Shown here piece by piece: positions 38,250 to 59,687 of a DNA stretch of 64,000 nt. This DNA comes from Solirubrobacter pauli (GTDB lineage: Bacteria > Actinomycetota > Thermoleophilia > Solirubrobacterales > Solirubrobacteraceae), in the NCBI RefSeq assembly GCF_003633755.1, contig NZ_RBIL01000002.1, positions 248,001 through 312,000 on the forward strand, read 5' to 3'. Numbering within the stretch: position 1 is the stretch's first letter; every line of letters begins with the position of its first letter. Position numbers and translations under genes: made by a program. The notes below the pieces were generated by a model. That model was not told the origin of the DNA, made no database searches, and saw only the letters and a program-made list of their open reading frames with translations.

Positions 38250-38268
38250 GGGTGATCCCCGCTCGTCC
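38250..38268. promoter_or_regulatory. Operator-like site 1 (GGGTGA, 7 bases, TCGTCC)
   Basis: GGGTGA at 38250 and TCGTCC at 38263 with a 7-base spacer; a weak third half-site TAGCCC sits 5 bases to the left (38239). Ends 24 bases before the membrane-protein start at 38293. It is the weakest of the eleven related sites but has the right spacing. Confidence 0.45.
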
Positions 38269-38270
38269 CA

Positions 38271-38293
38271 CGCGCCGGGAGAGTCCCGGCGCG
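38271..38293 (+). terminator. Perfect GC-rich hairpin after xylA
   Basis: CGCGCCGGGA, loop GAG, TCCCGGCGCG: 10-base arms without mismatch, 30 bases after the xylA stop. No T-tract. It ends on the first base of the next gene's GTG, so it could also influence that start. Confidence 0.5.
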
Positions 38294-38784
38294 TGTGGCA
38301 CGGCGTAGAAGAGCACCTCGGGTCCGAGCAGGTCTCGCGCGTCGTCTACGGCGCGATCATCGGCATGGCGCTGATCGTCGTGCTCGAGCATCACCCGCCC
38401 AGCGCGGGCGTGACGACCGTGACCCTCGTGGCGACCGCGATCGCGGTCGGCCTGGCCGAGCTCTACAGCGACTGGATCGGCCACGTCGTCAAGCACCGGG
38501 GCGGCTTCCACCGGCGCGACCTGGGCCACATCGCCGCCGACGTGAGCGCGGTGGCGGTCGGGATCGTCTTCCCCGACGTGTTCTTCCTGCTCGCGACGGT
38601 CGGCGTGCTCGAGCTGGACACGGCGTTCACCGTCGCCAAGTGGACCGGGCTCGGCCTGATCACCGCGTACGGCTACGCGGCCGGCCGGCTGTCCGGCGAG
38701 TCACATTCGCGGGCCGCGCTGCAGGCGCTCGCCGTCACCGCGATCGGCGCCGCCCTGATCGGGTTCAAGGCGTTCGTGCATTAG
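38293..38784 (+). CDS. Hypothetical four-helix membrane protein
   Basis: 163 aa from GTG 38293 (a GTG at 38295 is out of frame). Hydrophobic segments about 17-33, 40-56, 84-105 and 118-135, then a final LAVTAIGAALIGFKAF. GLAELYSDWIGHVVKHRGGFHRRDLGHI between helices 2 and 3 is polar and His-rich. No family recognised with confidence. The final 84 bases overlap the convergent ion-channel gene. Confidence 0.65.
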   Translation: MWHGVEEHLGSEQVSRVVYGAIIGMALIVVLEHHPPSAGVTTVTLVATAIAVGLAELYSDWIGHVVKHRGGFHRRDLGHIAADVSAVAVGIVFPDVFFLLATVGVLELDTAFTVAKWTGLGLITAYGYAAGRLSGESHSRAALQALAVTAIGAALIGFKAFVH

Positions 38785-39153
38785 CCGCTCGATCTGGTCG
38801 AGCCGGTCGGCGATGTGGTCCAGCGTGATCTCCGCCGGCACGCGGCGCTTGCGCCGCGCCGACTCGACGAAGATCGCGGTGATCGTGGCGGTGATGACGC
38901 TCATGAAGCCGAGCCCGGCGATGATCACGAGGGTCGCGATCACGCGCCCTTCGGTGCTCGTCGGCACGCGGTCGCCGTAGCCGACGGTGGTGATCGACTG
39001 CATCGCGAACCACATCCCGGACCCGAGCGTCGGGAAGTCCTGGCGGTCCACGATCCACATCACGACGCCGCCCGCGATCGCGATGCTCAGGGTGAACACC
39101 GAGATCAGCAGCGCCGCGCGCCGGGCCGTGAGGTCCATCACGTCGCCGATCAT
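38701..39153 (-). CDS. Two-helix potassium-channel protein
   Basis: 150 aa from ATG 39153. First membrane helix about 12-34, pore helix and selectivity filter TTVGYGD (55-61), second helix about 70-95, then a basic and coiled C-terminus (RRKRRVPAEITLDHIADRLDQIERLMHERLE). KcsA-type minimal K+ channel with no ligand domain. Its start is 11 bases from operator-like site 2. The 3' end overlaps the 38293 gene by 84 bases, so the last 28 residues may be dispensable. Confidence 0.85.
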   Translation of the reverse strand: MIGDVMDLTARRAALLISVFTLSIAIAGGVVMWIVDRQDFPTLGSGMWFAMQSITTVGYGDRVPTSTEGRVIATLVIIAGLGFMSVITATITAIFVESARRKRRVPAEITLDHIADRLDQIERLMHERLEPDQGGADRGDGERLQRGPRM

Positions 39154-39164
39154 GCGCGCGTGCG

Positions 39165-39207
39165 GGATGACGGTTCCTCGCCCGGATCGGGTGATGCCCG
39201 CTCACCC
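39165..39207. promoter_or_regulatory. Operator-like array 2, four half-sites
   Basis: GGATGA (39165), TCGCCC (39178), GGGTGA (39189) and TCACCC (39202), with spacers of exactly 7, 5 and 7 bases. Lies between the divergent K+ channel (11 bases away) and the holin-like/phosphodiesterase gene (61 bases away). Same layout as the arrays at 43068, 46277 and 51528. Confidence 0.7.
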
Positions 39208-39268
39208 GTGCGCGCTCAAGCTTGAGCGGCGTGCCACGCTTGCACCCCTGTCGCTCTCCGAGCTCGCC

Positions 39269-41398: not shown

Positions 41399-41902
41399 CG
41401 GGCCCCAGCCCCAGACCGGGATCAGCGCGCAGTCGACGCGGCCTCTGAGCGCCTCCATCGCCGGGTCGTAGTCGGTGTCGCCGGCGAACCAGACGCCGTC
41501 GACGAGGTACCCGAGCGTGTCGAGCTCCTCGGCGCCCGGCCCGGGACGGCGCCGGCCGTCGTGCCAGGCGGGCACGGCCTCGACCGGCACGCCGACGTCG
41601 ACCGTCTCGCCGACCCGGACCTCGTGCACGGCGTAGCCGGGCAGGTACTTCCGGGCGCCGACCGGAGCGAGCGCGGTCCGGCTCAGGTCCCGCAGCGACG
41701 GCTTGTGCAGGTGGTCGTGGTGCAGGTGGCTGATGAGCACGGCGTCGACGTCGCGCGGGCGTGCCGGCGTCGGCACCTGGCGCTTGAGGTGCAGCACGCG
41801 GTCGGCCAGCACCGGGTCGGTGAGCAGGCGCACGCCGCCGACCTCGATCAGCACGGTCGCGTGCCCGAGCCACGTCACCCGCCGTGCATGAGGTTCCGTC
41901 AC
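41177..41902 (-). CDS. Metallo-beta-lactamase-fold hydrolase (UlaG-like)
   Basis: About 241 aa from GTG 41902; GTG 41878 (VTWLGHATVLIEV) is an equally good start. Motifs: WLGHATVLIEVGGVRLLTDPVL, metal site SHLHHDHLHKPS, GYLVDGVWFAGDTDYDP, PVWGWGPSLGPGHLDP and a final histidine in VPIHWGTFLPLG. Cytosolic hydrolase of unknown substrate. Both candidate starts fall within operator-like site 3. The 3' end overlaps the phosphodiesterase gene by 222 bases. Confidence 0.82.
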   Translation of the reverse strand: MTEPHARRVTWLGHATVLIEVGGVRLLTDPVLADRVLHLKRQVPTPARPRDVDAVLISHLHHDHLHKPSLRDLSRTALAPVGARKYLPGYAVHEVRVGETVDVGVPVEAVPAWHDGRRRPGPGAEELDTLGYLVDGVWFAGDTDYDPAMEALRGRVDCALIPVWGWGPSLGPGHLDPAGAARVIDLIAPRLAVPIHWGTFLPLGLGRRHERLLTDPPLEFAAAVTGKTRVEVVAPGGTVEV

Positions 41903-41904
41903 CC
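41875..41904. promoter_or_regulatory. Operator-like site 3, three half-sites
   Basis: TCACCC (41875), GCATGA (41886; one mismatch) and TCACCC (41899), with spacers of 5 and 7. Ends 22 bases before ATG 41927 of the DUF gene and overlaps the start region of the divergent hydrolase. Confidence 0.6.
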
Positions 41905-41926
41905 GCCGCCCCCTGAGACTCGCCAC

Positions 41927-42298
41927 ATGACCTTCGGACCACTGCAGGTGCTCGTCATCAACTTCGACGAGGCGAACTTCGCCGGGCAGATCCAGGCTGA
42001 GCTGACCCGGCTCGAGGAAACCGGCATCGTGCGCATGCGCAAGGCGCTCGTGATCGCCAAGACCGCCGACGGCGACATCCAGGTGGTGCGCCAGGGTGGG
42101 GAGGACCCGGGCGAGCTGAGCCCGGACGAGCGCTCCGTCGCGGAGCTGCTCGAGCCCGGCGCGGCGGCCGCGATCGCGGTGCTCGAGCACCAGTGGGCGA
42201 TCCGCCTACGCGAGGCCATCATCAGCGCCGGGGGCACCGGCGTGCAGTCCGAGTGGGTGGACGCGGACCAGCTCGAGCAGCTCGGCGTCGCCATCTAA
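41927..42298 (+). CDS. Conserved hypothetical protein (DUF6325/DUF1269-like)
   Basis: 123 aa from ATG 41927. MTFGPLQVLVINFDEANFAGQIQAELTRLEETGIVRMRKALVIAKTADGD, then an acidic linker, then AAAIAVLEHQWAIRLREAIISAGG. The ferredoxin-like first half and alanine-rich second half resemble the DUF6325 group, whose function is unknown. No signal peptide. The stop overlaps the end of the convergent YihY gene by 4 bases. Confidence 0.65.
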   Translation: MTFGPLQVLVINFDEANFAGQIQAELTRLEETGIVRMRKALVIAKTADGDIQVVRQGGEDPGELSPDERSVAELLEPGAAAAIAVLEHQWAIRLREAIISAGGTGVQSEWVDADQLEQLGVAI

Positions 42299-43041: not shown

Positions 43042-43067
43042 GGGTGCCGGGATCGTGCGCAGGAGCG

Positions 43068-43110
43068 GAGCGACGATGCCTCATCCCGTCAGGATGACGC
43101 TGGATCACAC
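43068..43110. promoter_or_regulatory. Operator-like array 4, four half-sites
   Basis: GAGCGA (43068), TCATCC (43081), GGATGA (43092) and TCACAC (43105), with spacers of 7, 5 and 7. Two half-sites are perfect, the outer two degenerate. Between divergent yihY (26 bases) and the DUF7144 gene (14 or 23 bases). Confidence 0.65.
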
Positions 43111-44483: not shown

Positions 44484-44506
44484 GCGGGCGACGCTACGAC
44501 CGCCCA

Positions 44507-44525
44507 GGATGAGCTCGCATCACCC
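44507..44525. promoter_or_regulatory. Operator-like site 5, single palindrome
   Basis: GGATGA (44507) and TCACCC (44520), 7-base spacer. Single 19-bp unit between divergent hdeD-like (23 bases away) and prsW-like (15 bases away) genes. The flanking half-site positions are degenerate. Confidence 0.6.
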
Positions 44526-44540
44526 ACGCGGCATGGCATC

Positions 44541-46253: not shown

Positions 46254-46276
46254 CGCGGCGAACCTACGCAGGCGCG

Positions 46277-46319
46277 GGATGACGCTCCTTCACCCGGACC
46301 GGGTGAGGCTCGTTCACCC
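46277..46319. promoter_or_regulatory. Operator-like array 6, four half-sites (best copy)
   Basis: GGATGA (46277), TCACCC (46290), GGGTGA (46301) and TCACCC (46314), spacers 7, 5, 7; all four match the consensus without mismatch. Lies 23 bases from the USP start and 46 bases from the proposed TTG start of the divergent gene. Confidence 0.75.
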
Positions 46320-46365
46320 GCGCGGCCGGGATGGTCCCGGCATCCACGACGGATCGGCGGGGATC

Positions 46366-46986
46366 TTGGACAGTGAGCCCTTGGTCGTGCGCCTCGAGCG
46401 CGCGGTCCATCGCTTCCGCCTGCAATCGGCGCACAACCTGCTCGACGAGGCGTTCGCGACGGTCCCGCCGGAGGCGTTCCTGCGTGACGTCGGCCGGCCG
46501 CTGCTCGCCCGTCTCGACGACGCCGCCGAGCTGCGCTTCGCGACCTCGCTGCTCGAGCTGCGGCTCCTCGCGCAGGCCCAGGGCTGGGAGCGCGTGCACG
46601 GCCCGCTGGTCGTGCTGGCGTGCGCACCGAGCGACGACGCCGTGCTCGAGCTGATCGCGCTCGGCCTGGCCCTCGCCGCCCGCCACTGCCGGATCTCCTA
46701 CCTCGGCGCGGCCACGCCGGTCGACGCGCTGGCCGAAGCCGTCGCGCGGCAGCGCGCGGCCGCGGTCGTCCTCGCCACCGAGAGCGCCGCGCTGGACCGC
46801 CGGGACGGCGCCGAGCTGCGTGCCCTGCCGTGCCCGCTGGTGGTGGTGGGCCGCGCCCGCGAGCCGATCGCGCGCAGCCTGGCGGGCGTCGCGCTGGACG
46901 CCGACGCGCCCACCACGCCGACCCGGATCGCCGGACTGGCACGGCGGCAGTCATCCCGTCGGAGCGACGAGCCGTCACCCACCTGA
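46366..46986 (+). CDS. B12-binding-domain-like protein without DNA-binding domain
   Basis: About 206 aa from TTG 46366; an ATG at 46279 lies in the operator array. Residues 20-75 resemble the helical B12-binding-2 bundle (LLDEAFATVPPEAFLRDVGRPLLARL, ATSLLELRLLAQAQGWER). Residues 85-190 resemble the Rossmann-like B12 domain (VVLACAPSDDAVLELIALGLALAARHCRISYLGAATPVDALAEA). The usual histidine-containing loop (E-x-H-x-x-G) reads SDDAVLEL, so the cobalt-ligand histidine is missing. There is no HTH, unlike CarH/MerR relatives. Possibly a sensor that lost cobalamin. Moderately sure of the fold. Confidence 0.65.
   Translation: MDSEPLVVRLERAVHRFRLQSAHNLLDEAFATVPPEAFLRDVGRPLLARLDDAAELRFATSLLELRLLAQAQGWERVHGPLVVLACAPSDDAVLELIALGLALAARHCRISYLGAATPVDALAEAVARQRAAAVVLATESAALDRRDGAELRALPCPLVVVGRAREPIARSLAGVALDADAPTTPTRIAGLARRQSSRRSDEPSPT
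46951..46980. promoter_or_regulatory. Operator-like site 7, three half-sites
   Basis: TCATCC (46951), GAGCGA (46962) and TCACCC (46975), spacers 5 and 7. It sits inside the last codons of the B12-like gene and ends 30 bases before ATG 47011, the only downstream target. Confidence 0.55.
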
Positions 46987-47010
46987 GTCGCAAGATGCCC
47001 CTGCCGCCGT

Positions 47011-47226
47011 ATGACGCTGAACTACGAGATCCGCGTTCGAGGCCGGGTGGGCGACCACCTCGCCGACGCGCTCGGGCTGGAGGCCGAGACCGAGCCCGTG
47101 GAGACCGTTCTGCGCGGACCCGTGACCGACCAGGAGGGCCTGCACGGGATCCTCGAGCACCTGCAGGAGCTGGGGCTCGAGCTCGTCGAGGTGCGCCAGC
47201 TGCCGCGCGCGCACAAGTCCCTCTAG
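47011..47226 (+). CDS. Small conserved hypothetical protein, paralog of the 43538 gene
   Basis: 71 aa from ATG 47011 (MTLNYEIRVRGRVGDHLADALG). Same motif order as the 64-aa protein at 43538: EIRVRG, LGLEAETEPVETVLRGPV, LHGILEHLQELGLELVEVRQLP. No signal peptide or membrane segment. Function unknown. Both copies lie just downstream of operator-like sites. Confidence 0.7.
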   Translation: MTLNYEIRVRGRVGDHLADALGLEAETEPVETVLRGPVTDQEGLHGILEHLQELGLELVEVRQLPRAHKSL

Positions 47227-47432: not shown

Positions 47433-50084
47433 ATGAGCGCAGCGGCTGTGCGTAGAGCACCAGCCCTCGTCACCCAGTTCGCGGTCCCGCCGTCGCCGTT
47501 CGGGATGGTGGAGCGGCCACGCCTGACCCAGCGGGTGCAGGCGGGCATCCAGCGGCCCGTCACGCTCGTGTGCGCGCCGGCGGGCAGCGGCAAGACCGCG
47601 CTCGTCGCCACGAGCGTGGAGCGCGCCGCGTGGGTGACGCTCGAAGCCACCGAGGACGAGCCCGGCCGGTTGTGGGACGCGGTGCTGACCGCGCTCGACC
47701 TGGCCGGTGCCGTGCCGCCCGACTCGGCGTTGGCGGGGCTCGCCGCGCCGGTCAACGACAGCCGTGACACGTTCATGCCGCTGCTCGTGAACGCGCTCGC
47801 CGCGCTGCCCGAGCCGGTGGTGCTCGTGCTCGACGACGTGCACGTCCTGCGCAGCCGCGGGTGCCTCGCGCAGCTGGCGTTCCTGCTGCTGCACACGCCG
47901 GACACGCTCCGGCTGGTGATGACCGCGCGCAGCGACCCGCCGTTGCCCCTGCACGTGCTGCGCGTGCGGGGCCGCCTGGAGGAGATCCGCGCGACCGACC
48001 TGGCGTTCACGCGCGACGAAGCAAAAGCGCTTTTGGAGGCGCACGGCCTCACTCTCGAAGACGAGCTGATCGAGGCGCTGCACACGCGCACGGAGGGCTG
48101 GGGCGCCGGCCTGCGGCTGGCCGCGCTGAGCCTCCAGGGCCGCGACGACCCGGCGACGTTCGTGGCCGAGTTCGCCGGCGACGATCGCGTCGTCGCCGAC
48201 TACCTGCTGGCCGAGGTGCTGGATCGCCAGCCGCCGAAGCTGCGCGCGTTCCTGCTGCGTACGAGCCTCGTCGACCGCATCTGCGGCAGCCTGGCCGACG
48301 CGCTCACCGGCGACACCCACGGGGCGGACACGCTGGCCATGCTCGAGCGCACCAACGGGTTCGTCCTGGGCGTGGACGGCCACCGCGAGTGGTTCCGCTA
48401 CCACCGCCTGTTCGGGAAGCTGCTGCGCACCCGCGCCGAGCGCGAGCTGCACGCGAAGCTCGCCACGCTGCACGCGCGCGCCGCTCGCTGGTACGCGGAG
48501 CGCTGCGCCGCCGTGGAGGCGCTCGAGCACGCCGTCCTGGCGGGCGAGCACGACCTGGCGGTGGAAGTCGTCGCCGCCCACTGGTTCGACCTCTACGTGC
48601 GCGGCGACGCCGCCGCCGTCCGCGAGCTGCTGACCAAGGTGCCCGCGGAGCGGCTCGAGCGCGACGCGGAGCTGTCCGCGGCGCTCGCCTGCGCGGCGCT
48701 GGACGTGGGGGACACCGATTCGGCCGAGCTGCACATGGCACACGCCGAGCAGGCCGATCATCCCGATTCGCGCCGGCGGCGCTACCTGGAGACGATGGCG
48801 CTCGCCGGCCTCGGCATCGCCCGCCTCGAAGGGGACTTCGACGCGGCGCTGCGGGCCGCGGACGCGCTCCTCGCCGAGGCCGCGACGCACGCCGGCCCGG
48901 AGGAGGACGGCGCCCGCGAGGCGCTCGTGCACGCCATGCTCGGCGAGACCGCGCTGTGGGCGCACGACCTCGAGCGGGCCGGGCAGGAGCTGCACAAGGC
49001 GGTCGCCGGGGCACGAGCGCACCAGCTCGACTACGTCGCGGTCTCGGCGCTCAGCTACCTGGCGCTGCACGACGTGATGCTGCACGGCCCCGCCGACGAC
49101 CAGGGCCACGGGCAGCAGGCGATCGAGCTCGCCGCGCGCCGCGGCTGGTGCAAGATCCCGCAGACCGCATGCGCGCACGCCGCGCTCGCGCTGCACGCGT
49201 TCTACGACCTGCGGCCGGCGGACGCGGCCGAGCACCTCGAGCGTGCGCGGGGCGCCGCCGCGAGGCTGCGCCGCCGCCAGCTGGACTTCGTGATCGCCCA
49301 CCTCGACGCCCGCATGCACGGCGCCGGCGGCGAGCCCAAGCTCGGGATCCGCGTGCTCGACGACTACGAGGCGCTGCATCGACACCACGGCCCGCCCCTG
49401 GTGTACGAGCGCGGCGCCGTGGCGGCGATGCGCGCGCGGCTGCAGATCCAGGACGGGGCCCTCGAGGAGGCGGCGCTGACGCTCGCGTCGGTCGAGGACG
49501 ACCGGTCGATGGCCGTCACGGCCGCGGATGCGCGCCTCGCGCTGGCAAGCGGCGATCCTGCCGAGGCGGTCGAGCTGCTCGAGCCGGCGGGCGACCAGCT
49601 GGCGATGCACGCGGTCACGAGGGTCGAGACGCTCGTGCTGCTGGCCATCTCCTACCACGAGAACGGCGAGCCGGGCAGGGCCACGCGGGCGCTCGAGGAC
49701 GCGCTCGCCCTCGCCGAGGGCAACCGCCACCGCTGGCCGTTCCTGGAGCTCGGCCGGCCGATGGAAGAGCTCCTGCGCCACCAGATCCGCGCCGGCACCG
49801 CCCATCGGGCGCTCGTCGGCGAGCTGCTCGACGCGTTCGCCGACCGGGCGCCGGCCACGCGTCACGTCGCCCCGCTGCTGGAGCCGCTGTCCGAGCGCGA
49901 GCAGGCGATCCTCCGCTACCTGCCGACCGCGCTCTCCAACCGCGAGATCGCCGCCGAGCTGTTCGTCACGACCAACACGGTCAAGACGCACCTGCGCAGC
50001 ATCTACCGCAAGCTCGACGTCGCCCGCCGGCGCGAGGCCGTCGAACGCGCGCGGGACCTACGGCTCCTTTCCTCCCGGCGCTAA
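47433..50084 (+). CDS. MalT-like STAND LuxR-family regulator (1)
   Basis: 883 aa from ATG 47433. P-loop APAGSGKTALV (about 46-56), Walker B-like VVLVLDDVHVLRS, arginine-rich RLVMTARSDPPLPL and the winged segment (FVAEFAGDDRVVADYLLAEVL), as in MalT. Long TPR-like middle (about 380-790). C-terminal HTH: LSEREQAILRYLPTALSNREIAAELFVTTNTVKTHLRSIYRKLDV. Such proteins bind an inducer, oligomerise with ATP and bind DNA repeats. Candidate binder of the nearby half-site arrays (inference). The last 27 bases overlap the next gene. Confidence 0.86.
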   Translation: MSAAAVRRAPALVTQFAVPPSPFGMVERPRLTQRVQAGIQRPVTLVCAPAGSGKTALVATSVERAAWVTLEATEDEPGRLWDAVLTALDLAGAVPPDSALAGLAAPVNDSRDTFMPLLVNALAALPEPVVLVLDDVHVLRSRGCLAQLAFLLLHTPDTLRLVMTARSDPPLPLHVLRVRGRLEEIRATDLAFTRDEAKALLEAHGLTLEDELIEALHTRTEGWGAGLRLAALSLQGRDDPATFVAEFAGDDRVVADYLLAEVLDRQPPKLRAFLLRTSLVDRICGSLADALTGDTHGADTLAMLERTNGFVLGVDGHREWFRYHRLFGKLLRTRAERELHAKLATLHARAARWYAERCAAVEALEHAVLAGEHDLAVEVVAAHWFDLYVRGDAAAVRELLTKVPAERLERDAELSAALACAALDVGDTDSAELHMAHAEQADHPDSRRRRYLETMALAGLGIARLEGDFDAALRAADALLAEAATHAGPEEDGAREALVHAMLGETALWAHDLERAGQELHKAVAGARAHQLDYVAVSALSYLALHDVMLHGPADDQGHGQQAIELAARRGWCKIPQTACAHAALALHAFYDLRPADAAEHLERARGAAARLRRRQLDFVIAHLDARMHGAGGEPKLGIRVLDDYEALHRHHGPPLVYERGAVAAMRARLQIQDGALEEAALTLASVEDDRSMAVTAADARLALASGDPAEAVELLEPAGDQLAMHAVTRVETLVLLAISYHENGEPGRATRALEDALALAEGNRHRWPFLELGRPMEELLRHQIRAGTAHRALVGELLDAFADRAPATRHVAPLLEPLSEREQAILRYLPTALSNREIAAELFVTTNTVKTHLRSIYRKLDVARRREAVERARDLRLLSSRR

Positions 50085-51167: not shown

Positions 51168-51501
51168 GCACGAGGATCATGACCGACCAGACGGGATACG
51201 CGCCGAGCGACGTGAGGGCCACCACCGCGCTGATCAGCGCGAGGATCGCGCCGAGCGCCGGGCCGAAGGGGTTCCCGCGATGGAGCAGCCAGGCCGCGAA
51301 GAGCTGCACCACGCCGATGCACAGGTAGATCGTGCCCCACAGCGCGAGGTCGCCGAACAGCAGCTCGTCGGCGCGGAAGTAGTCGTCCTGCACCAGCGCG
51401 GCGAGGCCGTCGATCAGGTTGAAGCACCCGAGCACGAAGAACAGGCAGACGACGAACGCCGTCCAGTTCTGCCCGCGTTCGACTGGAGGTCCCGCGCTCA
51501 T
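51109..51501 (-). CDS. DUF7144-family membrane protein (paralog 2)
   Basis: 130 aa from ATG 51501. Four helices: WTAFVVCLFFVLGCFNLIDGLAALVQDDYF, ALWGTIYLCIGVVQLFAAWLL, GAILALISAVVALTSLGAYPVWS and VLDGLVIYALTVYG. Shares the DDYF, LLFGDL and AYPVWS landmarks with paralog 1. Divergent from the 51593 gene over operator-like array 8. Confidence 0.78.
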   Translation of the reverse strand: MSAGPPVERGQNWTAFVVCLFFVLGCFNLIDGLAALVQDDYFRADELLFGDLALWGTIYLCIGVVQLFAAWLLHRGNPFGPALGAILALISAVVALTSLGAYPVWSVMILVLDGLVIYALTVYGTGRATA

Positions 51502-51527
51502 CTCCCCGTGGACGTTCGGCCACGCGC

Positions 51528-51570
51528 GGGTGAGCGCGGATCACTCCGCCGGGATGACCACGCATCACCC
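51528..51570. promoter_or_regulatory. Operator-like array 8, four half-sites
   Basis: GGGTGA (51528), TCACTC (51541), GGATGA (51552) and TCACCC (51565), spacers 7, 5, 7; one mismatch in total. Lies 26 bases from the DUF7144 start and 22 bases from the divergent GTG at 51593. Confidence 0.7.
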
Positions 51571-51592
51571 GTGTCCTCGGGAGGCTCTGGCC

Positions 51593-52825
51593 GTGACCGA
51601 TGTGGTCCCCAACGACGAGGTCGAGCGGCTGCGCGCACGCAACGCCGAGCTCGAGCGCAAGGTGGCGCGGCGGGTCCGCGTCCGCGGCACGTTCTCCGGT
51701 CTCCTCCTCGTGCTGGGCTGCGGGCTCGCCGTGCTGTCGCTCGTCGCGGTGTGGCTGCGCGCGACGCTGCTGGACACCGACCGGTACGTGAGCACGGTCG
51801 CGCCGATCGCCGCCGAGCCCGGCGTGCAGGACGCGGTCGCCGCCAAGCTCGAGACCGCGATCTTCACCCGCGTCGACTTCACCTCGCTCGCGCGTGAGGT
51901 CCTGCCCGACCGCGCCGACCTGCTCGCGCCCGCGATCGAGACCGGCGCGAAGACCGTCATCAGCGACCGGATCGAGACCTTCACGCGCTCCGACCGCTTC
52001 CAGACGCTGTGGGTGGAGGCCAACCGGCGCGCGCACACGCGGCTGGTGGAGCTGCTGACCACCGGACGCTCGAACCGGCTCGCGCTCGACGACGAGACGC
52101 TCTACCTCGACCTGTCCCCGGTGGTGGACCGGGTGAAGACCGCGCTCGACGAGCGCGGGCTGAGCCGGATCGCGGCCGCGATCCCGCCGACCGTCGACGG
52201 CCGGATCGAGCTCGTGCAGTCCTCGGCGTTCGCCGACGCGCGCACCGGCGTCAAGGCGCTGAAAGCGAGCGCGATCGTCCTGCCGATCCTCGCGCTGCTG
52301 TGCCTCGCGGGGTCGGTGTGGCTGGCGTCGGGCTGGCGGCGCGGGCTGCTGCGCGCCGGCATCGGCGTCGCCGTGGCGATGGTGCTGCTGATCGCGTTGC
52401 TCGCGGTCGGCCGCTCGGCGTACCTGGACGCGCTCGATCAGGGCGCGCTCCCGCGCGACGCCGCATCCAACATCTTCGACACGCTCGTCGCCTTCCTGCG
52501 CGACGGCGTGCGCGTGACCGTGGTGGTCGCGGTGCTGGTCGCGCTGATCACGTACGTCGCCGGGCTGCCGCTGGCCGCGCTCGGGCGGCGCGTGTGGGGG
52601 AGCCGGCAGCGCACGTGGGTCGCCCGTCACGAGCGCACGCTGATGCTCGTCGTCGGCGGGCTGGGGCTGCTGGTGTTGTTCGCCTACAGCCCGCTCACCG
52701 GCGGCGTGGTGCTGGTCACGTTGCTGGTGGCCGGCGCGCTGTGCGGCGTGATCGCGCTGCTGGGCCTGGAGCCCCGTGACGCGCCGACCGACGAGGAGCA
52801 CCACATCATCGCCCCCAGTGGGTGA
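51593..52825 (+). CDS. Membrane protein with large extracytoplasmic domain, unknown function
   Basis: 410 aa from GTG 51593. A short charged coiled start (DEVERLRARNAELERKVARRVR) precedes helix 1 (about 32-55). A 170-residue extracytoplasmic region opens with DRYVSTVAPIAAEPGVQDAVAAKLETAIF, and four more helices follow (about 222-242, 250-270, 300-325 and 350-390). The DTDRYVxTVAPIAxxPxVQ pattern is familiar from actinobacterial membrane proteins of unknown role. The stop codon is part of operator-like site 9. Confidence 0.75.
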   Translation: MTDVVPNDEVERLRARNAELERKVARRVRVRGTFSGLLLVLGCGLAVLSLVAVWLRATLLDTDRYVSTVAPIAAEPGVQDAVAAKLETAIFTRVDFTSLAREVLPDRADLLAPAIETGAKTVISDRIETFTRSDRFQTLWVEANRRAHTRLVELLTTGRSNRLALDDETLYLDLSPVVDRVKTALDERGLSRIAAAIPPTVDGRIELVQSSAFADARTGVKALKASAIVLPILALLCLAGSVWLASGWRRGLLRAGIGVAVAMVLLIALLAVGRSAYLDALDQGALPRDAASNIFDTLVAFLRDGVRVTVVVAVLVALITYVAGLPLAALGRRVWGSRQRTWVARHERTLMLVVGGLGLLVLFAYSPLTGGVVLVTLLVAGALCGVIALLGLEPRDAPTDEEHHIIAPSG

Positions 52826-52838
52826 TGCCGTCCCACCC
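52809..52838. promoter_or_regulatory. Operator-like site 9, three half-sites
   Basis: TCGCCC (52809), GGGTGA (52820) and CCACCC (52833), spacers 5 and 7. Overlaps the stop of the upstream gene and ends 23 bases before ATG 52862. Confidence 0.55.
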
Positions 52839-52861
52839 CGGCTCGGCCGAGCATCCGGGGC

Positions 52862-53409: not shown

Positions 53410-53823
53410 TCAGCCGGCGAGGTTGTAGCGGTCGCGCCCGCCGTAGTTGAACAGGCCCCAGATGATGATCACGTCGACGAAGAACAGGATCATCGTCAGC
53501 GCCGGGTAGCTGTCGATCGCCAGGAAGTTGGCGATCATGTTCGCGGCGGCGAACAGGATGCCCAGCCAGCGCGCCCACTCCTTGGCGGCGAAGATGCCGC
53601 CCGCGGTGATCAGCTGCGCGCCGCCGAGGATCGTGAGCACCCAGCCCCAGAAGTTGAGGTTGGCGAGCACGAACTTCGTGTCGTTGACGAAGAACTTGGA
53701 GTCGCTGATCATCGCGATGCCGTAGATCAGGTTCAGCACGGCCACGATGCCGAGCATCACGCCCGCGAAGATGATCCAGGGCCGGCCGAGGTCGACGTCG
53801 TAGGTCGACGGGTCAACGTGCAT
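53410..53823 (-). CDS. DUF7144-family membrane protein (paralog 3)
   Basis: 137 aa from ATG 53823. Four helices: WIIFAGVMLGIVAVLNLIYGIAMISDSKFF, ANLNFWGWVLTILGGAQLITAGGIFAAKEWARWLGILFAAANMIANFLAIDSYPAL and VDVIIIWGLFNYGG. Closest in pattern to paralog 4, which it follows after 1 base on the same strand. Function unknown. Confidence 0.8.
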   Translation of the reverse strand: MHVDPSTYDVDLGRPWIIFAGVMLGIVAVLNLIYGIAMISDSKFFVNDTKFVLANLNFWGWVLTILGGAQLITAGGIFAAKEWARWLGILFAAANMIANFLAIDSYPALTMILFFVDVIIIWGLFNYGGRDRYNLAG

Positions 53824-53824
53824 G

Positions 53825-54262
53825 TCAGTCCTTCCGGGCGCCGTGGGCGACCAGGCCGTAGATGACGAGGATGTCCAGCGTGAAGAGCATCGCCGCCCAC
53901 CACGGGTAGGCGGGCAGCACCAGCAGCTGCACGATCGCGTTGATCGACACGACGGCCACGCCGACCCAGCGCGCGCCGGTCATCTGCGCCGCGACGCCGA
54001 ACGACGTCAGCAGCTGCGCCGCCGCGATCAGGATCAGCACCCAGCCCCACGTGCTCAGACCGCTGAAGACGAACTCGGTCTGGCCGACGAAGAACGAGGA
54101 CTCCGCCACCGCGGCGATCCCGTAGATGAAGTTCATGACGGCCAACAGGCCGATCATCGAGGCGCTGAACATCACCCAGCTGGGCGAGCTGTCCGCGCCG
54201 AGGAAGACGCCATCGGGCGGGCGCTGCTCCGTCCGGAAACGCGTGGGTTCGACCATGCTCAT
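53825..54262 (-). CDS. DUF7144-family membrane protein (paralog 4)
   Basis: 145 aa from ATG 54262 (ATG 54256 possible). A polar N-terminus of 28 residues, then four helices: WVMFSASMIGLLAVMNFIYGIAAVAESSFF, STWGWVLILIAAAQLLTSFGVAAQMTGARWVGVAVVSINAIVQLLVLPAYPWW and the last helix. First gene of a two-gene unit with paralog 3. Operator-like site 10 lies 35 bases upstream. Confidence 0.8.
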   Translation of the reverse strand: MSMVEPTRFRTEQRPPDGVFLGADSSPSWVMFSASMIGLLAVMNFIYGIAAVAESSFFVGQTEFVFSGLSTWGWVLILIAAAQLLTSFGVAAQMTGARWVGVAVVSINAIVQLLVLPAYPWWAAMLFTLDILVIYGLVAHGARKD

Positions 54263-54297
54263 GAGCCGAAGCTAATGCGCCTGCGGAGCGCCCGGCA

Positions 54298-54314
54298 TCG
54301 CCCGTTCCGGGTGA
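54298..54314. promoter_or_regulatory. Operator-like site 10, two half-sites
   Basis: TCGCCC (54298) and GGGTGA (54309), spacer 5; the outer positions are degenerate. 35 bases before the ATG of the DUF7144 pair on the minus strand. Confidence 0.4.
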
Positions 54315-54326
54315 ACTGCGCGGGGC

Positions 54327-56402
54327 TCAGGACGAGAGGAGCCCGAGCGCGGTCGCGCGGGTCACCGCCTCGTCGCGCGAGTGCACGCCGAGCTTGCGGT
54401 AGATCGAGCGCAGGTGGGTCTTGACGGTGTTCGCCGACAGGAACAGCGCGCCGGCGATCTCCGCGTTCGAGCGGGGTGTGGGCAGCTGCTCGAGGACCAG
54501 CTGCTCGGCGGGGGAGAGCGGCTCCGTCGGGCCTTCGACGGCGGTCCGCCGCAACGTCTCGGTGACGCGCTCGAGCAGCGCGGGCGCGCCGCCCGCGTCC
54601 CGGCAGTCGGCGATCACGGCGCGCGCCTCGGCGAGCGTGGCCTCGGCGCGGGCGAGCTCGCCGCGGCCGGCGCGCGCCAGCGCGAGCTCGAGCAGGATGC
54701 GGGCGCGGAAGGCGCCGGTGGGCCGCAGCGAGAGCGCGCGGTCGGCGGCGCGGACGGCCCGGCCGAGGCGTCCCTCGGCGCGCGCGACGACGGCGTCCGC
54801 GGCGTGCGCGCGGGCCTCGATCCGGGTGTCGACGTTGCCCGTCGACCGCACCACCAGCAGCGCCTGGTCGGCGTGCTCGCGCGCCGCCTCGAGCCGGCCG
54901 GCTTGAACCTCCGTGATGGCGATCGTGGCGAGCGCGACCGCGAAGCCGTGCGGGCGCCGCTCCGCCGTCGGGTGCTGGAGCGCCTGCGCGCACGTGCGGC
55001 GCGCGAGCGGCTCGTCACCGGCGTTGAGCTGCATCGCGGCGAGGGTCGCGAGCGCGGCGACGGCCAGTTCGTCGTCGGCCACCGCGACCGCCGCCTCGGC
55101 GGCCTCGATCGCCGCCGGCACGTCGTCGTCACGCGCGATCGCCGTGGTGATCCGCAGGATCCCCTCCTGGTAGGGCGTCCAGGCCTCGGGGTGCTTGGCG
55201 TGCGCGCGCCGGGCCGCGGCCAGCAGGCGCTCGACCTCGAACGCGGGCCGACCGCCGGCGCTGGCCGCGGCCGCGCCGGCGACCAGCGTCACGGGCCGCT
55301 CCGCGAGCTCGGACTCGGGCAGGTCACGCAGCCAGCGCAGCAGGGTCGTCGTGCGGCCGGAGCGCGTGAGCGTCAGCTGGTGGCGGTCGATCAGGTCGGC
55401 GATGAACGCGTGGTCGCCGCCGGCGCGGGCGTACTCCACCGCCTCCTCGATCTGGCCCTGGGCGTCGAACCACTCCGCGGCGCGCCGGCAGCGCGGCACC
55501 GGGTCGTCGTCGTCGGGCCGCACGAGCTCGCGGAAGAGCGGGTGGTAGCGGTGCCACCCGGCCTCGTCGTCGTCGAGCGCGACGAGGAACAGGTTGCGGC
55601 GCTCGAGCGCCGCGATCCGCTCGGCGGAGTCCTCGATCCGCAGGACGTGGTCGCACAGCGGCGCGCACAGGCGGGACAGGATCGCGGTGCCGACGAGGAA
55701 GTCGTGCAGCTCGGGCTCGAGCCCGGCCAGCACCTCGGTCGTGACGAACTCGGACAGGTGCCGGCGGGGGAGGGAGGTGACGTCGCCGCCGTCGCGGACC
55801 CACAGCGCGACGAGGTAGACCGCGGCCGGCCAACCTTCGGTGCGCGCGACCACCGCCTCCGCGTCCACGCCTTCGCCGAGCACGCGCGCCGCCTCCTCGA
55901 CGGTGAACGCGAGCGTCGGTGCGCGCACCTCGCCGAGGTGGCCCTGGACGCGCAGGCGCGCCAGCCGGATCGGCGGGTCGGCGCGCGAGATCAGGACGAG
56001 CCGCGCGAACACCCGCGCCGCGTGGCCGAGGGTGGCCAGGCAGTGCTTGTCGCTCAGCACGTGCACGTCCTCGAGCACGAGCGGCTGCTCGCGCTCGGCG
56101 AGCGCGTCGATGGCGACTTCGAGCGGTGCGTCGGGCAGCGTCGTGCCCAGCGCCGCCGCGGCGTACCGCCACAGCCGCACCGGGTCGTTGTCGGCGGCGT
56201 CGAGCGAGACCCAGGCCGCCGGCGCGTGCTCGAGCCAGGACGCCACGGCGACGGTCTTCCCGTAGCCCGCCGGCGCGGACACGAGCACGACCTCCGACTC
56301 GGCCGCGCGCTCGAGGGCGCGGGTCACACGCGGCCGGTCGACCAGGTCCGCGCGCGAGCGGGGCCGCGCGAGCTTGCTCTCGATGAGAGGAACCTCGAAC
56401 AC
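54327..56402 (-). CDS. MalT-like STAND LuxR-family regulator (2)
   Basis: 691 aa from GTG 56402. VPLIESKLARPRSRADLVDRPRV opening, P-loop APAGYGKTVAV (about 44-54), LVLEDVHVLSD, VLISRADPPIRLARLR, all MalT-like. A shorter TPR-like middle than regulator 1. C-terminal HTH: LSPAEQLVLEQLPTPRSNAEIAGALFLSANTVKTHLRSIYRKLGV. Lies 11 bases after the ZIP transporter gene on the same strand, so probably cotranscribed with it. Inducer unknown. Confidence 0.85.
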   Translation of the reverse strand: MFEVPLIESKLARPRSRADLVDRPRVTRALERAAESEVVLVSAPAGYGKTVAVASWLEHAPAAWVSLDAADNDPVRLWRYAAAALGTTLPDAPLEVAIDALAEREQPLVLEDVHVLSDKHCLATLGHAARVFARLVLISRADPPIRLARLRVQGHLGEVRAPTLAFTVEEAARVLGEGVDAEAVVARTEGWPAAVYLVALWVRDGGDVTSLPRRHLSEFVTTEVLAGLEPELHDFLVGTAILSRLCAPLCDHVLRIEDSAERIAALERRNLFLVALDDDEAGWHRYHPLFRELVRPDDDDPVPRCRRAAEWFDAQGQIEEAVEYARAGGDHAFIADLIDRHQLTLTRSGRTTTLLRWLRDLPESELAERPVTLVAGAAAASAGGRPAFEVERLLAAARRAHAKHPEAWTPYQEGILRITTAIARDDDVPAAIEAAEAAVAVADDELAVAALATLAAMQLNAGDEPLARRTCAQALQHPTAERRPHGFAVALATIAITEVQAGRLEAAREHADQALLVVRSTGNVDTRIEARAHAADAVVARAEGRLGRAVRAADRALSLRPTGAFRARILLELALARAGRGELARAEATLAEARAVIADCRDAGGAPALLERVTETLRRTAVEGPTEPLSPAEQLVLEQLPTPRSNAEIAGALFLSANTVKTHLRSIYRKLGVHSRDEAVTRATALGLLSS

Positions 56403-56413
56403 TCAGGCGGACT

Positions 56414-57097: not shown

Positions 57098-57120
57098 GGA
57101 CGCACGCTACCGCTTCGCGG

Positions 57121-57399
57121 TCAACCGAACACGCGCGGGCGGATGTCGTCGCCGCGCGCCGCGATGTCGCCCACCTCGGAGATGAACTCGACGAGGTCAC
57201 GGTCGGGCGGACCCACCTCCGTCGCGTGCTGGTACCCGGACGAGCGCGCGCCGAGCGCGATCCCGACGAGCCGCGCGATCAGGTCGTCGGCGGCTTCTTG
57301 CAGCGAGAACCCGACGCCGTAGGTGAGCCCGGCGAGCGTCAGGTGACAACGGCCGGCGGACTCGCGCAGCGAGAGCGGCGGTGACCACACATCAGGCAC
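57121..57399 (-). CDS. Small hypothetical protein
   Basis: 92 aa from GTG 57399 (VPDVWSPPLSLRESAGRCHLTLAGLTYGVG); GTG 57435 would add 12 residues. Contains LQEAADDLIARLVGIALGA and an acidic C-terminus. No family recognised. The composition looks like real protein, and the gene fits the gap between ZIP and the CoA-transferase gene. Confidence 0.6.
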   Translation of the reverse strand: MPDVWSPPLSLRESAGRCHLTLAGLTYGVGFSLQEAADDLIARLVGIALGARSSGYQHATEVGPPDRDLVEFISEVGDIAARGDDIRPRVFG

Positions 57400-57466
57400 A
57401 AGCCCGTTGCTGCCCCATTCGGTCTCCGGTGACACACCACCGTCGCGTCGGTGAGAATGCGAGCCG

Positions 57467-58600
57467 ATGAGCGGACCTTTGCACGGCGTCAGGGTGATCG
57501 AGATCGCGAGCATCGGGCCCGGCCCGTTCGCGGCGATGCTGCTCGCGGACCTCGGCGCGGACGTGATCCGCATCGACCGTGCGGGCGGCGCCGGGAATCC
57601 GCTCGGCGAGGGGGCCTGGAACTTCCTGCACCGGGGACGGCGCTCAGCGGCGGTGAACCTCAAGCACGACGGCGGGCGCGAACTGGTGCTGCGCCTGTGC
57701 GAGCGCGCCGACGCGCTGGTCGAGGGCTTCCGGCCGGGCGTCATGGAGCGGCTGGGCCTGGGGCCGGACGCCGCGCTCGCCCGCAACCCGAAGCTCGTCT
57801 ACGGGCGCATGACCGGTTACGGGCAGGACGGCCCGCTGAGCGCCCGCGCCGGGCACGACATCAACTACATCTCGATCGCGGGTGTGCTCGGCGCGATCCG
57901 GCGCACGGGGGAGAAGCCGCTGTTCCCGCTCAACCTGGTCGGCGACTTCGGGGGCGGCGGGATGCTGCTCGCGCTGGGCGTGGTGGCCGCCGTGCTGGAG
58001 GCGCGGACGTCCGGGCAGGGGCAGGTCGTGGACGCCGCGATGGTGGAGGGCAGCGCGCTGCTGGCGACGATGGTCCACGCGATGCACGCCGCGGGCCTGT
58101 GGAACGACGCTCCGGGCACCAACCTGCTCGACTCGGGCGCCCCGTTCTACGAGGTCTACGAGACCAGCGACGGCCGGCACATGGCCGTGGGCGCGCTGGA
58201 GCCGCAGTTCTACGCGGAGCTGCTGCGGCTCCTGGAGCTGGACCCGGAGGCGTTCCCGCAGTGGGACCAGCCGCGCTGGCCGGAGTACAAGGCGCGCTTC
58301 GCGGCGGTGTTCGCCACCCGCACGCGCGACGAGTGGGCCGCGCGGCTCGAGGGCGAGGAGGCGTGCGCGACGCCGGTGCTCGGCCTGACCGAGGCGCCCG
58401 CACACCCGCACAACGTCGCGCGCGGCACGTTCACGACCGTCGACGGGCGGCTGCAGCCCGCGCCGGCGCCGCGCTTCTCGCGCACGCCGGCCGTGATCTC
58501 AGGCCCCGCGAGCGAGCCCGGGGCCGACACCGACGCCGTCCTTGGCGACTGGGGCATCGACGACGTCGCCCGCCTGCGTGACGCTGGGGCCGTCGCGTAG
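57467..58600 (+). CDS. CaiB/BaiF family CoA transferase, alpha-methylacyl-CoA racemase type
   Basis: 377 aa from ATG 57467. GVRVIEIASIGPGPFAAMLLADLGADVIRID opening. The racemase-specific catalytic pattern is present: His/Asp in RAGHDINYISIAG, Asp in LNLVGDFGGGGML and Glu in VGALEPQFYAELL. These three distinguish racemases from CoA transferases in the family. Epimerises 2-methylacyl-CoA in branched lipid breakdown. The last 102 bases overlap the convergent AI-2E gene. Confidence 0.86.
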   Translation: MSGPLHGVRVIEIASIGPGPFAAMLLADLGADVIRIDRAGGAGNPLGEGAWNFLHRGRRSAAVNLKHDGGRELVLRLCERADALVEGFRPGVMERLGLGPDAALARNPKLVYGRMTGYGQDGPLSARAGHDINYISIAGVLGAIRRTGEKPLFPLNLVGDFGGGGMLLALGVVAAVLEARTSGQGQVVDAAMVEGSALLATMVHAMHAAGLWNDAPGTNLLDSGAPFYEVYETSDGRHMAVGALEPQFYAELLRLLELDPEAFPQWDQPRWPEYKARFAAVFATRTRDEWAARLEGEEACATPVLGLTEAPAHPHNVARGTFTTVDGRLQPAPAPRFSRTPAVISGPASEPGADTDAVLGDWGIDDVARLRDAGAVA

Positions 58601-59635
58601 GGCCGCCATCCGGGCGCGGCGCGGGGCGGTCGCCTCGCGGATCACGGTCTTGATCACGGCCGCGAACGGCACCGCCAGGATCGCGCCGACGATCCCGAGC
58701 AGCGCCGACGCGACCAGCACCGCGACGATCGTCGTGAAGGCGCTCAGCTCGACCGCCTTCTTGTAGACGATCGGGTAGACGATGTAGTTCTCGACCTGCT
58801 GGTAGATCAGCTGGATGATCAGCATGATCACGGCCTCGGTCGTGCCGACGGTCAGCGCGACGGCGACGAGGATGACCGAGGCGACGGTCGCGCCGACCTG
58901 CGGGATCAGGTCCAGCAGCCCGGCGATCACGGCCAGCACGATCGGGAACGGCAGGCCGAGGATGTACGCGCTCAGGCCGGCGATCGTGCCCGCGACGAGC
59001 GAGATCGCGATGTTGCCCAGCAGCGACGAGGAGACCGCGCGGATCGATTCCTCGACGACCGGGCTCCAGCGCTGCTCGGCCTCCGGCGGCGCGAACCCGA
59101 ACAGCCAGCTCGTGATCATCGGCCGCTCCATCAGCAGGAACAGCGCGAGGAAGGTCAGCGTGACCATGCTCAGGATCGAGCCGAACACGCCGCCCGCGGC
59201 GCCGAGCAGCGTCGAGGCCGCCTCGGGGAAGCCGCGCGCCAGGTCGGCGAGCCAGCTCTGGACCTTCTCGTCGAAGCCCGCGGTGCTGGAGAGGTCGTTG
59301 AACCAGTCCGACTCCTGCAGATCCTGCCAGTAGCCCGGGAGCGCCTGGATGAACTCCTTGATCTCGTCCCACACCGGGCCGGCCGTGACGAGGATCAGCA
59401 CGAGCACGCTGGCGAACAGCGCCGCGAACACGACCAGCGACGCCCTGCCGCGGTTCCAGCCCCGCTTGACCATGCGCGCCACGATCGGGTCGAGCCCGAG
59501 GGCGATCACCGCCGCCAGGAAGATCGACAGCAGCGTGCCGAGCGACAGGATCGCCAACACGACCAGCAGCCCGAAGACGAACACGGTCATCAGCGTCTTG
59601 ACGCCGATCACGATCTCCACCCGCTGTGGCTTCAC
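58499..59635 (-). CDS. AI-2E family transporter (PerM-like membrane protein)
   Basis: 378 aa from GTG 59635 (VKPQRVEIVIGVKTLM). About eight hydrophobic segments. Family motifs: FLAAVIALGLDPIVARMVKRGWNRGRASL, SMVTLTFLALFLLM, GLPFPIVLAVIAGLLDLIPQVGATVASVI and QVENYIVYPIVYKKAVELSAF. Some members move Na+/H+ or signals; the substrate is unknown here. Divergent from the TPP enzyme over operator-like site 11. The 3' end overlaps the racemase gene. Confidence 0.85.
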   Translation of the reverse strand: MKPQRVEIVIGVKTLMTVFVFGLLVVLAILSLGTLLSIFLAAVIALGLDPIVARMVKRGWNRGRASLVVFAALFASVLVLILVTAGPVWDEIKEFIQALPGYWQDLQESDWFNDLSSTAGFDEKVQSWLADLARGFPEAASTLLGAAGGVFGSILSMVTLTFLALFLLMERPMITSWLFGFAPPEAEQRWSPVVEESIRAVSSSLLGNIAISLVAGTIAGLSAYILGLPFPIVLAVIAGLLDLIPQVGATVASVILVAVALTVGTTEAVIMLIIQLIYQQVENYIVYPIVYKKAVELSAFTTIVAVLVASALLGIVGAILAVPFAAVIKTVIREATAPRRARMAALRDGPSVTQAGDVVDAPVAKDGVGVGPGLARGA

Positions 59636-59657
59636 GGCCGCATCCTCCGCCGCGCGC

Positions 59658-59687
59658 GGGGGACCCTGCCTCATCCGATGCGGGTGA
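59658..59687. promoter_or_regulatory. Operator-like site 11, three half-sites
   Basis: GGGGGA (59658), TCATCC (59671) and GGGTGA (59682), spacers 7 and 5; the fourth position (59695) is degenerate. Between the divergent AI-2E gene (22 bases) and the TPP-enzyme gene (30 bases). Confidence 0.55.

What the first reader, a model, noticed from the sequence alone, without database searches (positions are those of the whole stretch)
38250..59687. Undescribed regulon: eleven phased palindromic operator sites across a 21-kb stress/membrane island
Half-sites GGRTGA and TCAYCC alternate with spacers of exactly 7, 5 and 7 bases. Full four-half-site arrays occur at 39165, 43068, 46277 and 51528; three-half-site versions at 41875, 46951, 52809 and 59658; single pairs at 38250, 44507 and 54298. 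Fixed phasing over four elements cannot be chance. Most sites lie 11-46 bases from a start codon, six of them between divergent genes (K+ channel/phosphodiesterase, hydrolase/DUF6325-like, YihY/DUF7144, HdeD/PrsW, USP/B12-like, DUF7144/51593; AI-2E/TPP is a seventh, degenerate case). The unit nearest a gene is usually the 19-bp palindrome with the 7-base spacer, and units repeat every 24 bases. I noticed no such array in 1-38 kb. Closeness to start codons suggests a repressor or a core-promoter factor. An alternative sigma factor using GGRTGA direct repeats 18 bases apart is a second reading, but the three-half-site copies often lack that direct repeat on the coding strand.
Basis: seen in the sequence. 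Interest (0 to 1): 0.88.

Follow-up and report, generated by a model that had tools for sequence, protein, structure and literature searches.

The report
Operator code of MalT-like actinobacterial activators
The repeated short DNA palindromes found here are real, evolutionarily conserved control sites placed at a fixed distance from gene starts, and they most likely mark genes switched on by a poorly understood family of large sensor-activator proteins that soil bacteria such as Streptomyces also carry.

Summary
In detail: GGRTGA/TCAYCC half-sites with 7-5-7 spacers sit at the 11 stated places, far above chance. The interpretation needs changes. The core unit is the 17-bp inverted repeat TCAYCC-N5-GGRTGA, not the 19-bp 7-spacer pair. 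A -10-like hexamer (xANNNT) starts exactly 32 bp from the core centre at 11 of 11 window sites. In 9 of the 12 window promoters to which a script assigned a gene, the start codon lies 0-4 nt from the implied transcription start. The third half-site lies on the promoter side (50 of 58 versus 5 of 58). This is activator (class II-like) rather than repressor geometry. The same repeat recurs near MalT-like STAND/LuxR (LAL) genes in Streptomyces, Actinoplanes, Lentzea and others: 144 exact copies at spacer 5, at most 6 at any other spacer tested. In this Solirubrobacter genome, 6 of 6 LAL proteins with an [NS]TVKT recognition helix have sites within about 1.5 kb, against 1 of 16 others within 2.5 kb. 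Targets are largely small membrane/stress DUF proteins. I infer a LAL activator regulon; binding, activation and signal are untested. I found no description of it in the searches named.

The parts
38239..38268 (+). Site 1: degenerate 5-spacer core (centre 38247) plus promoter-side half-site; -10-like GAGAGT at 38279-38284; faces the 163-aa ORF at 38293
   Evidence: ORF 83% identical in G004
39165..39207 (.). Site 2: four half-sites, core centre 39186; -10-like hexamers on both sides (39217-39223 + in two registers, 39149-39154 -); K+ channel (-, start called at 39141) and holin/phosphodiesterase (+, 39269)
41875..41904 (+). Site 3: three half-sites, core centre 41883; -10-like GAGACT 41915-41920; start codon of the 123-aa gene at 41927 (no Pfam match)
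43068..43110 (.).
44507..44536 (-). Site 5: exact 7-spacer pair plus degenerate third half-site, core centre 44528; -10-like TAGCGT 44491-44496 (-); DUF308/HdeD-like gene start 44483
46277..46319 (.). Site 6: four perfect half-sites, core centre 46298; TAGGTT 46261-46266 (-) for the universal stress protein (start 46253); GATGGT 46330-46335 (+) for the 206-aa gene at 46366
46951..46980 (+). Site 7: three half-sites (degenerate, core centre 46959); CAAGAT 46991-46996; faces the 71-aa gene (47011-47226), with LALa next downstream
51528..51570. Site 8: four half-sites, core centre 51549; GAGGCT 51581-51586 (+) for the 410-aa gene at 51593; GAACGT 51512-51517 (-) facing the DUF7144 ORF that starts at 51501 (the script assigned the LPG-synthase-like ORF further down instead)
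52809..52838 (+). Site 9: three half-sites, core centre 52817; GAGCAT 52849-52854; DUF1269 gene start 52862
54298..54314 (-). Site 10: core only, centre 54306; TAGCTT 54269-54274 (-); DUF7144 pair 54262-53410
59658..59687 (-). Site 11: three half-sites, core centre 59679; GAGGAT 59642-59647 (-); AI-2E family transporter start 59635
47433..50084 (+). LALa: MalT-like STAND ATPase-TPR-GerE regulator, 883 aa, recognition helix TTNTVKTHLRSIYRKL; leading candidate binder
   Evidence: (MalT 8bob E 7e-41)
54327..56402 (-). LALb: second LAL regulator, 691 aa, recognition helix SANTVKTHLRSIYRKL; second candidate binder

Best explanation
The sites are operators for MalT-like STAND activators of the LAL family (here LALa and/or LALb). 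An inactive LAL monomer senses an unknown signal with its NOD-TPR part, oligomerises, and its GerE domains bind half-sites GGRTGA. The basic operator is the inverted repeat TCAYCC-N5-GGRTGA centred about 44 bp upstream of the transcription start, where it can contact RNA polymerase in place of a good -35 box and activate transcription from a xANNNT -10 box. In Solirubrobacter and some relatives a third half-site (TCAYCC at about -28 to -23) is added on the promoter side, and divergent promoters share one core, giving four half-sites. The regulon consists largely of small membrane/stress proteins and, in part of the cases, the LAL gene itself. SHOWN from sequence: operator grammar, fixed distance to a -10-like hexamer, start-codon distance, conservation, link to LAL genes and to their recognition-helix type. 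INFERRED: that LAL binds, that it activates, that it oligomerises along the array, and the signal.
For: Spacer specificity: 144 exact TCAYCC-N5-GGRTGA in 79 LAL-anchored loci of named genomes (many of them related Streptomyces), at most 6 at any other spacer 0-20; reversed control 0 exact in all 80 loci. 69 of 77 actinobacterial loci have at least one, 0 of 3 non-actinobacterial. In 8 named genomes (69.5 Mb, picked for long contigs) 18 of 35 exact copies fall in the 8 LAL loci, about 0.25% of the DNA; reversed control 2 in total. Own genome: 7 of 22 long LAL/LuxR ORFs have a site within 2.5 kb (null mean 0.76, max 6); with helix [NS]TVKT[HQ] 6 of 6, with other helices 1 of 16. -10 geometry: xANNNT at +31/+32 in 147 of 288 oriented windows (other offsets mean 9.2, max 20) and in 66 of 116 in Solirubrobacterales (mean 5.0, max 13). 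Third half-site (up to 2 mismatches) on the promoter side 50 of 58 vs 5 of 58. Implied starts often coincide with start codons. The MalT box is GGA[TG]GA (PMC9628970, passages), and MalT-dependent pulAp/malPp800 carry four sites (PMC10427625, passages). LALa aligns with MalT (E 7e-41).
Against: No binding or expression data. 8 of 77 actinobacterial LAL loci have no exact core. Of 14 seven-spacer sites of this genome looked at (C1:1397180, C1:3264800, C1:1572014, C2:1120511) have no -10-like hexamer at +31/+32, and at the first two no LAL ORF was found in the 20-kb stretch. In G207, two core clusters (L231, L232) have no LAL found in 20 kb, though that genome has one beside another core. Autoregulation is not general: GerE proteins are 4 of 145 called targets but 11 of 120 control genes of the same loci. 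The LAL with helix NTLHSH (C1:1568150) has only a one-mismatch site 1.7 kb away. In the phylum sample the 114 genomes outside the five rich ones hold 57 cores against 25 reversed-control hits in all 119, so single cores are often chance. MalT boxes are usually arranged as direct repeats (recalled), unlike here. A 262-aa GerE-type ORF with helix TTVKTH also exists in this genome (L032).
Confidence: 0.74

Rival explanations
1. Another regulator with a GerE-type DNA-binding domain, such as a NarL-type response regulator, binds the repeats; the LAL genes are merely neighbours or targets.
For: A 262-aa GerE-type ORF with helix TTVKTH lies 2.4 kb from site C1:1397180 (L032); HisKA_3 histidine-kinase proteins are among called targets (2 of 145); some core clusters have no LAL found within 20 kb (L231, L232).
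Against: Sites follow the LAL recognition-helix type within one genome (6 of 6 vs 1 of 16). Four of 14 hand-picked genomes without a LAL match above about 56 bits (G196, G228, G260, G270) have 0, 0, 1 and 0 cores, whereas the ten with one have 1 to 19. The half-site resembles the MalT box.
Confidence: 0.13
2. The sites are repressor operators overlapping the core promoter.
For: The third half-site sits between -35 and -10, and sites lie close to start codons; SCO6993, a LAL, is reported as a repressor (PMC9628970, start of abstract and passages).
Against: In most one-sided promoters of the other genera sampled the third half-site is missing (22 of 119 have it, up to 2 mismatches), leaving only the core at about -44, a position typical of activators; MalT activates.
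Confidence: 0.1
3. The half-sites are promoter elements of an alternative sigma factor.
For: Fixed distance to the -10-like hexamer.
Against: The core is a two-fold symmetric repeat centred at about -44 and is used in both directions at some sites; half-site orientation alternates; the -10 is a generic xANNNT.
Confidence: 0.03

Closest known systems
MalT and the maltose regulon of E. coli
   Same: Same domain order (NOD ATPase, TPR, GerE); LALa aligns with MalT PDB 8bob over residues 26-423; half-site GGATGA fits the MalT box GGA[TG]GA (PMC9628970, passages); several sites per promoter (four in pulAp/malPp800, PMC10427625, passages).
   Different: Inverted repeat with N5 rather than direct repeats (MalT arrangement recalled); the third base is A or G; targets are membrane/stress DUF proteins, not maltose genes; the inducer is unknown.
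Actinobacterial LAL regulators (SCO0877, SCO7173, SCO6993, PikD and others)
   Same: Protein family and host phylum.
   Different: In the passages I saw no consensus site is given (PMC9628970 states that none could be predicted; PMC3282765 showed none).
LuxR/NarL/DosR-type GerE dimer sites
   Same: Inverted repeats recognised by GerE dimers; activators often near -42 (recalled).
   Different: Different half-site and spacing (their sequences are recalled, not compared here); no response regulator is implicated so far.

Membership tests
MalT-type STAND/LAL regulators (protein) | N-terminal STAND NOD ATPase | tested here: met
   MalT 8bob alignment 26-423, E 7e-41; AAA_16 E 1.1e-6 but 29.7 bits, below its cut-off of 32.6
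MalT-type STAND/LAL regulators (protein) | MalT-like TPR sensor | tested here: inconclusive
   LALa PF17874 44.7 bits vs cut-off 45; LALb 27.8
MalT-type STAND/LAL regulators (protein) | C-terminal GerE HTH | tested here: met
   PF00196 56.9 and 56.2 bits, cut-off 23.5
MalT-type STAND/LAL regulators (protein) | Inducer- and ATP-dependent oligomerisation before DNA binding | not testable with these tools
   needs purified protein
MalT regulon | MalT box GGA[TG]GA | tested here: inconclusive
   GGATGA half-sites fit; the commoner GGGTGA does not
MalT regulon | Maltose/maltodextrin targets | tested here: not met
   commonest target families are SHOCT, PLDc_N, DUF1269, DUF7144, DUF308 (25 of 89 families shown)
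Class II activator-dependent promoters | Site overlapping -35 with -10 at fixed distance | tested here: met
   (sequence only; transcription starts not mapped)
Class II activator-dependent promoters | Transcription depends on the activator | not testable with these tools
   no expression data
Alternative sigma factor promoter | Direction-specific -35 element | tested here: not met
   symmetric core, used in both directions at 4 of 11 window sites

The most novel reading that the evidence does not exclude
A STAND (NLR-like) oligomer assembles across the core promoter: two protomers on the -44 inverted repeat and a third inside the -35/-10 spacer (about -28 to -23), replacing -35 recognition. 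The one operator code TCAYCC-N5-GGRTGA serves a whole clade of actinobacterial LAL proteins (recognition helix NTVKTH), controlling a conserved membrane-stress regulon made mostly of uncharacterised protein families.
Probability: 0.35. Interest if true: 0.78.

Novelty: new variant of a known kind. Interest (0 to 1): 0.64.

Why it matters
LAL/STAND regulators are abundant in actinobacteria (22 long LAL/LuxR ORFs among the matches in this genome), yet in the papers I saw their operators have no consensus. An operator code with a matching recognition helix would let their regulons be read from sequence, would assign a common regulator to several uncharacterised families (DUF7144, DUF1269, DUF308, SHOCT/PLDc_N, a 71-aa family with no Pfam match), and gives a bacterial NLR-like protein with a simple promoter readout, in genera where genetics is routine, such as Streptomyces.

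Tried and rejected
Rfam scan of the window: one match only, a cobalamin riboswitch far from the sites. Repressor and sigma-factor readings: set aside on geometry. The 7-spacer palindrome as the basic unit: rejected because the other genera sampled mostly keep only the 5-spacer core (144 vs 12 exact). LAL at C1:1568150 as a clear case of linkage: withdrawn, because its helix is NTLHSH and its site has a mismatch and lies 1.7 kb away. Literature: searches showed no paper on this motif or regulon. Searches found 0 papers; the others list only the top of larger sets (20 of 66, 30 of 2,997, 6 of 7, 20 of 274, 15 of 61, 12 of 161), and the library is open-access PMC only, so absence there is weak. 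Papers seen: PMC9628970, PMC5930380, PMC3282765, PMC10427625 and PMC6468293, passages only; all others as listings with starts of abstracts.

Biases to know. Set B (Solirubrobacterales) was mostly fetched by the three-half-site pattern, so the fraction of three-half-site promoters is inflated; sidedness and -10 position were not selected for. In set A the asymmetry is weaker: 22 of 119 on the -10 side, 7 of 119 on the other. Footprint pairs were chosen where the partner core had at most 1 mismatch, so core conservation is inflated. Target genes were called by a simple script that favours the first start codon behind the -10. 43 of 205 exact cores (32 of 144 and 11 of 61; expected 90 and 45 by coverage) fall inside its gene interiors, in part perhaps wrong starts. 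The 22 LAL ORFs are the matches with open frames of at least 690 aa (150 of 161 candidates scored); at least one further long LuxR ORF exists (L028:14678-17479, 934 aa, helix HRTVSTH, 6.3 kb from the nearest site). Distances are to the matched stretch, not the whole ORF. The helix regexes missed some ORFs, and read two in the wrong frame, mended. The 14 genomes were picked by hand. For the Pfam comparison I scanned 145 of 312 unique targets (random) and 120 of 145 control genes drawn from 791; only the top 25 families are shown, so a family not shown for the controls has at most 2 members. DUF6325 appears with 2 controls and is not among the 25 shown for targets.
Full report
What is there. In the window, half-sites GGRTGA and TCAYCC alternate with spacers 7-5-7 at the 11 places reported. 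The 7-spacer pair with at most 1 mismatch occurs 12 times, other spacers 0-2 times; the 5-spacer pair 8 times, others at most 3; no 7-spacer pair with up to 2 mismatches is in 1-38 kb. The window is C2:248001-312000 of a 7.1-Mb genome. The genus is Solirubrobacter: the best named match to the window's 883-aa regulator (83%) is S. phytolaccae contig NZ_JAPDDP010000053.1, which has the same length (51,415) as the contig of G003 that carries the orthologous island, and G003 is listed as same genus. Genome-wide there are 11 exact 7-spacer sites (control 0), 38 with at most 1 mismatch (control 5) and 12 exact 5-spacer sites (control 0).

Conservation. The strict three-half-site pattern is found in 14 of 151 genomes, own included (45 places, 3 of them own), among them 6 of 7 of the genus; the reversed control is 0 in all 151. 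In genus relatives the island is wholly or partly syntenic and arrays sit at orthologous promoters (K+ channel/phosphodiesterase, the 248-aa membrane protein/DUF7144, HdeD-like, USP, DUF7144/410-aa, DUF1269). Over 14 orthologous promoter pairs identity is 88% in core half-sites (148 of 168), 83% in outer half-sites (140 of 168), 73% in N7, 64% in the -10 hexamers (107 of 168), 61% in N5, 52% in N10 and 47% in flanks (304 of 644) (pairs were chosen for a recognisable core).

Core unit. Loci were fetched from named genomes by similarity to the window's LAL protein alone (80 loci). In 79 of them (L105-L183) TCAYCC-Nk-GGRTGA occurs 144 times at k=5 and at most 6 times at any other k from 0 to 20; the reversed control gives 0 exact (all 80 loci). 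69 of 77 actinobacterial loci have at least one exact core, 47 have two or more, and 0 of 3 other loci (Clostridium twice, Desulfocucumis) have any. The 7-spacer extension is exact only 12 times in these 79 loci, in Dactylosporangium (L114, L116, L175) and one metagenome bin (L105). So the 5-spacer inverted repeat is the general operator, and the 7-5-7 array is a lineage-specific elaboration.

Promoter geometry. With all cores read in both directions, xANNNT shows a sharp peak at +31/+32 from the core centre: 147 of 288 oriented windows against a mean of 9.2 (max 20) at other offsets in the named loci, 66 of 116 against 5.0 (max 13) in Solirubrobacterales, and 16 of 34 against 1.3 (max 5) in the window with up to 2 mismatches. 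Counted by site, of the 144 named-locus cores 119 have it on one side, 14 on both and 11 on neither; of 58 Solirubrobacterales cores 42, 12 and 4. All 11 reported window sites have it at exactly +32 on at least one side, 4 on both sides. Taking the hexamer as the -10 box puts the core centre at about -44. Of the 12 window promoters to which assigned a gene, 9 have the start codon 0-4 nt from the implied transcription start (0-1 nt in 8); the other three are 24, 40 and 338 nt away. Over both sets 119 of 359 are within 3 nt (related loci not removed, and the script favours the first start codon). The third half-site (up to 2 mismatches) lies on the -10 side in 50 of 58 one-sided promoters and on the other side in 5 of 58 (set B, core at most 1 mismatch); in divergent pairs in 33 of 46 directions. 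In the other genera the figures are 22 and 7 of 119. The Solirubrobacterales grammar is TCAYCC-N5-GGRTGA-N7-TCAYCC-N10-xANNNT. Of 14 seven-spacer sites of this genome looked at singly, 10 have the hexamer at the expected place and 4 do not.

Who binds. The island holds two LAL regulators (47433-50084 and 54327-56402). LALa aligns with E. coli MalT (PDB 8bob, E 7e-41). In the own genome 7 of 22 long LAL/LuxR ORFs have a site within 2.5 kb, null mean 0.76 with a maximum of 6 in 20,000 placements; outside the island 5 of 20, null mean 0.53, reached in 2 of 20,000. Reading the recognition helices one by one: the six with [NS]TVKT[HQ] all have sites within about 1.5 kb; of the 16 others (KTVETH, RTVEYH, KTVDHH, NTLHSH and the like) one has a site within 2.5 kb, a one-mismatch copy 1.7 kb away. 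In eight named genomes 18 of 35 exact cores lie in the LAL-anchored loci, which make up about 0.17 of 69.5 Mb. In a sample of 119 genomes of the phylum (own included) five genomes hold 53 of 110 exact cores and all others have 0-2; reversed-control hits total 25. Of 14 hand-picked genomes examined with the LAL profile, the four without a match above about 56 bits have 0, 0, 1 and 0 cores, the ten with one have 1 to 19; in G171, G189, G207 and G239 a core lies within 1.5 kb of a LAL match. The half-site resembles the MalT box GGA[TG]GA (PMC9628970, passages), and MalT promoters can carry four sites (PMC10427625, passages). A NarL-type regulator as binder is not excluded.

What is controlled. 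Among 145 first genes behind a core plus -10 (random draw from 312): SHOCT 17, PLDc_N 15, DUF1269 11, DUF7144 10, DUF308 9, GerE 4, and DUF2252, SfLAP, AI-2E, BrkB and Phosphodiest 3 each. Among 120 other genes of the same loci: GerE 11, DUF7144 3, DUF2252 2, DUF6325 2; SHOCT, PLDc_N, DUF1269 and DUF308 are not among the 25 families shown. By sequence clustering the commonest target family is a 65-80-aa protein (38 members); the window's 71-aa member has no Pfam match and is predicted with pLDDT 91 as beta-alpha-beta-beta-alpha-beta, loosely like ACT/acylphosphatase folds (best E 3.6e-3). Some LAL genes are among the targets (cluster of 10), but GerE proteins are commoner among the controls, so direct autoregulation holds for only part of them; in the window LALa lies behind the 71-aa gene of site 7. 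The make-up suggests a membrane or envelope stress response; this is inference from family names.

Verdict. A real, widely conserved operator and promoter grammar, very probably read by a clade of MalT-like STAND activators. New as a regulon and operator code so far as the capped searches show, but of a known kind (activator regulon).

Noticed in passing
window 47011-47226 (+): 71-aa protein, member of the commonest target family of the core in other genera (cluster of 38), no Pfam match; predicted ACT/ferredoxin-like fold. May be a small ligand-binding partner of the LAL system.
   Followed up: partly
window 53410-54262 (-): Tandem DUF7144 genes; the window holds 4 of the 5 DUF7144 genes found in the genome; no paper in the library mentions DUF7144.
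   Followed up: partly
window 63782-63798 (+): Two-mismatch core-like repeat with a good -10 (TAGAAT) at +32; possibly a further weak site at the island edge.
   Followed up: no
window 19672-19743 (-): Cobalamin riboswitch match, 34.7 bits against gathering 31.5.
   Followed up: no
window 27334-30588 (-): A third LuxR-type large ORF with helix KTVDHH and no operator within 7 kb, a natural negative control for the specificity class.
   Followed up: partly
L231 and L232 (G207:C88): Core clusters, some with -10-like hexamers, but no LAL gene found in 20 kb, suggesting unlinked regulon members.
   Followed up: partly
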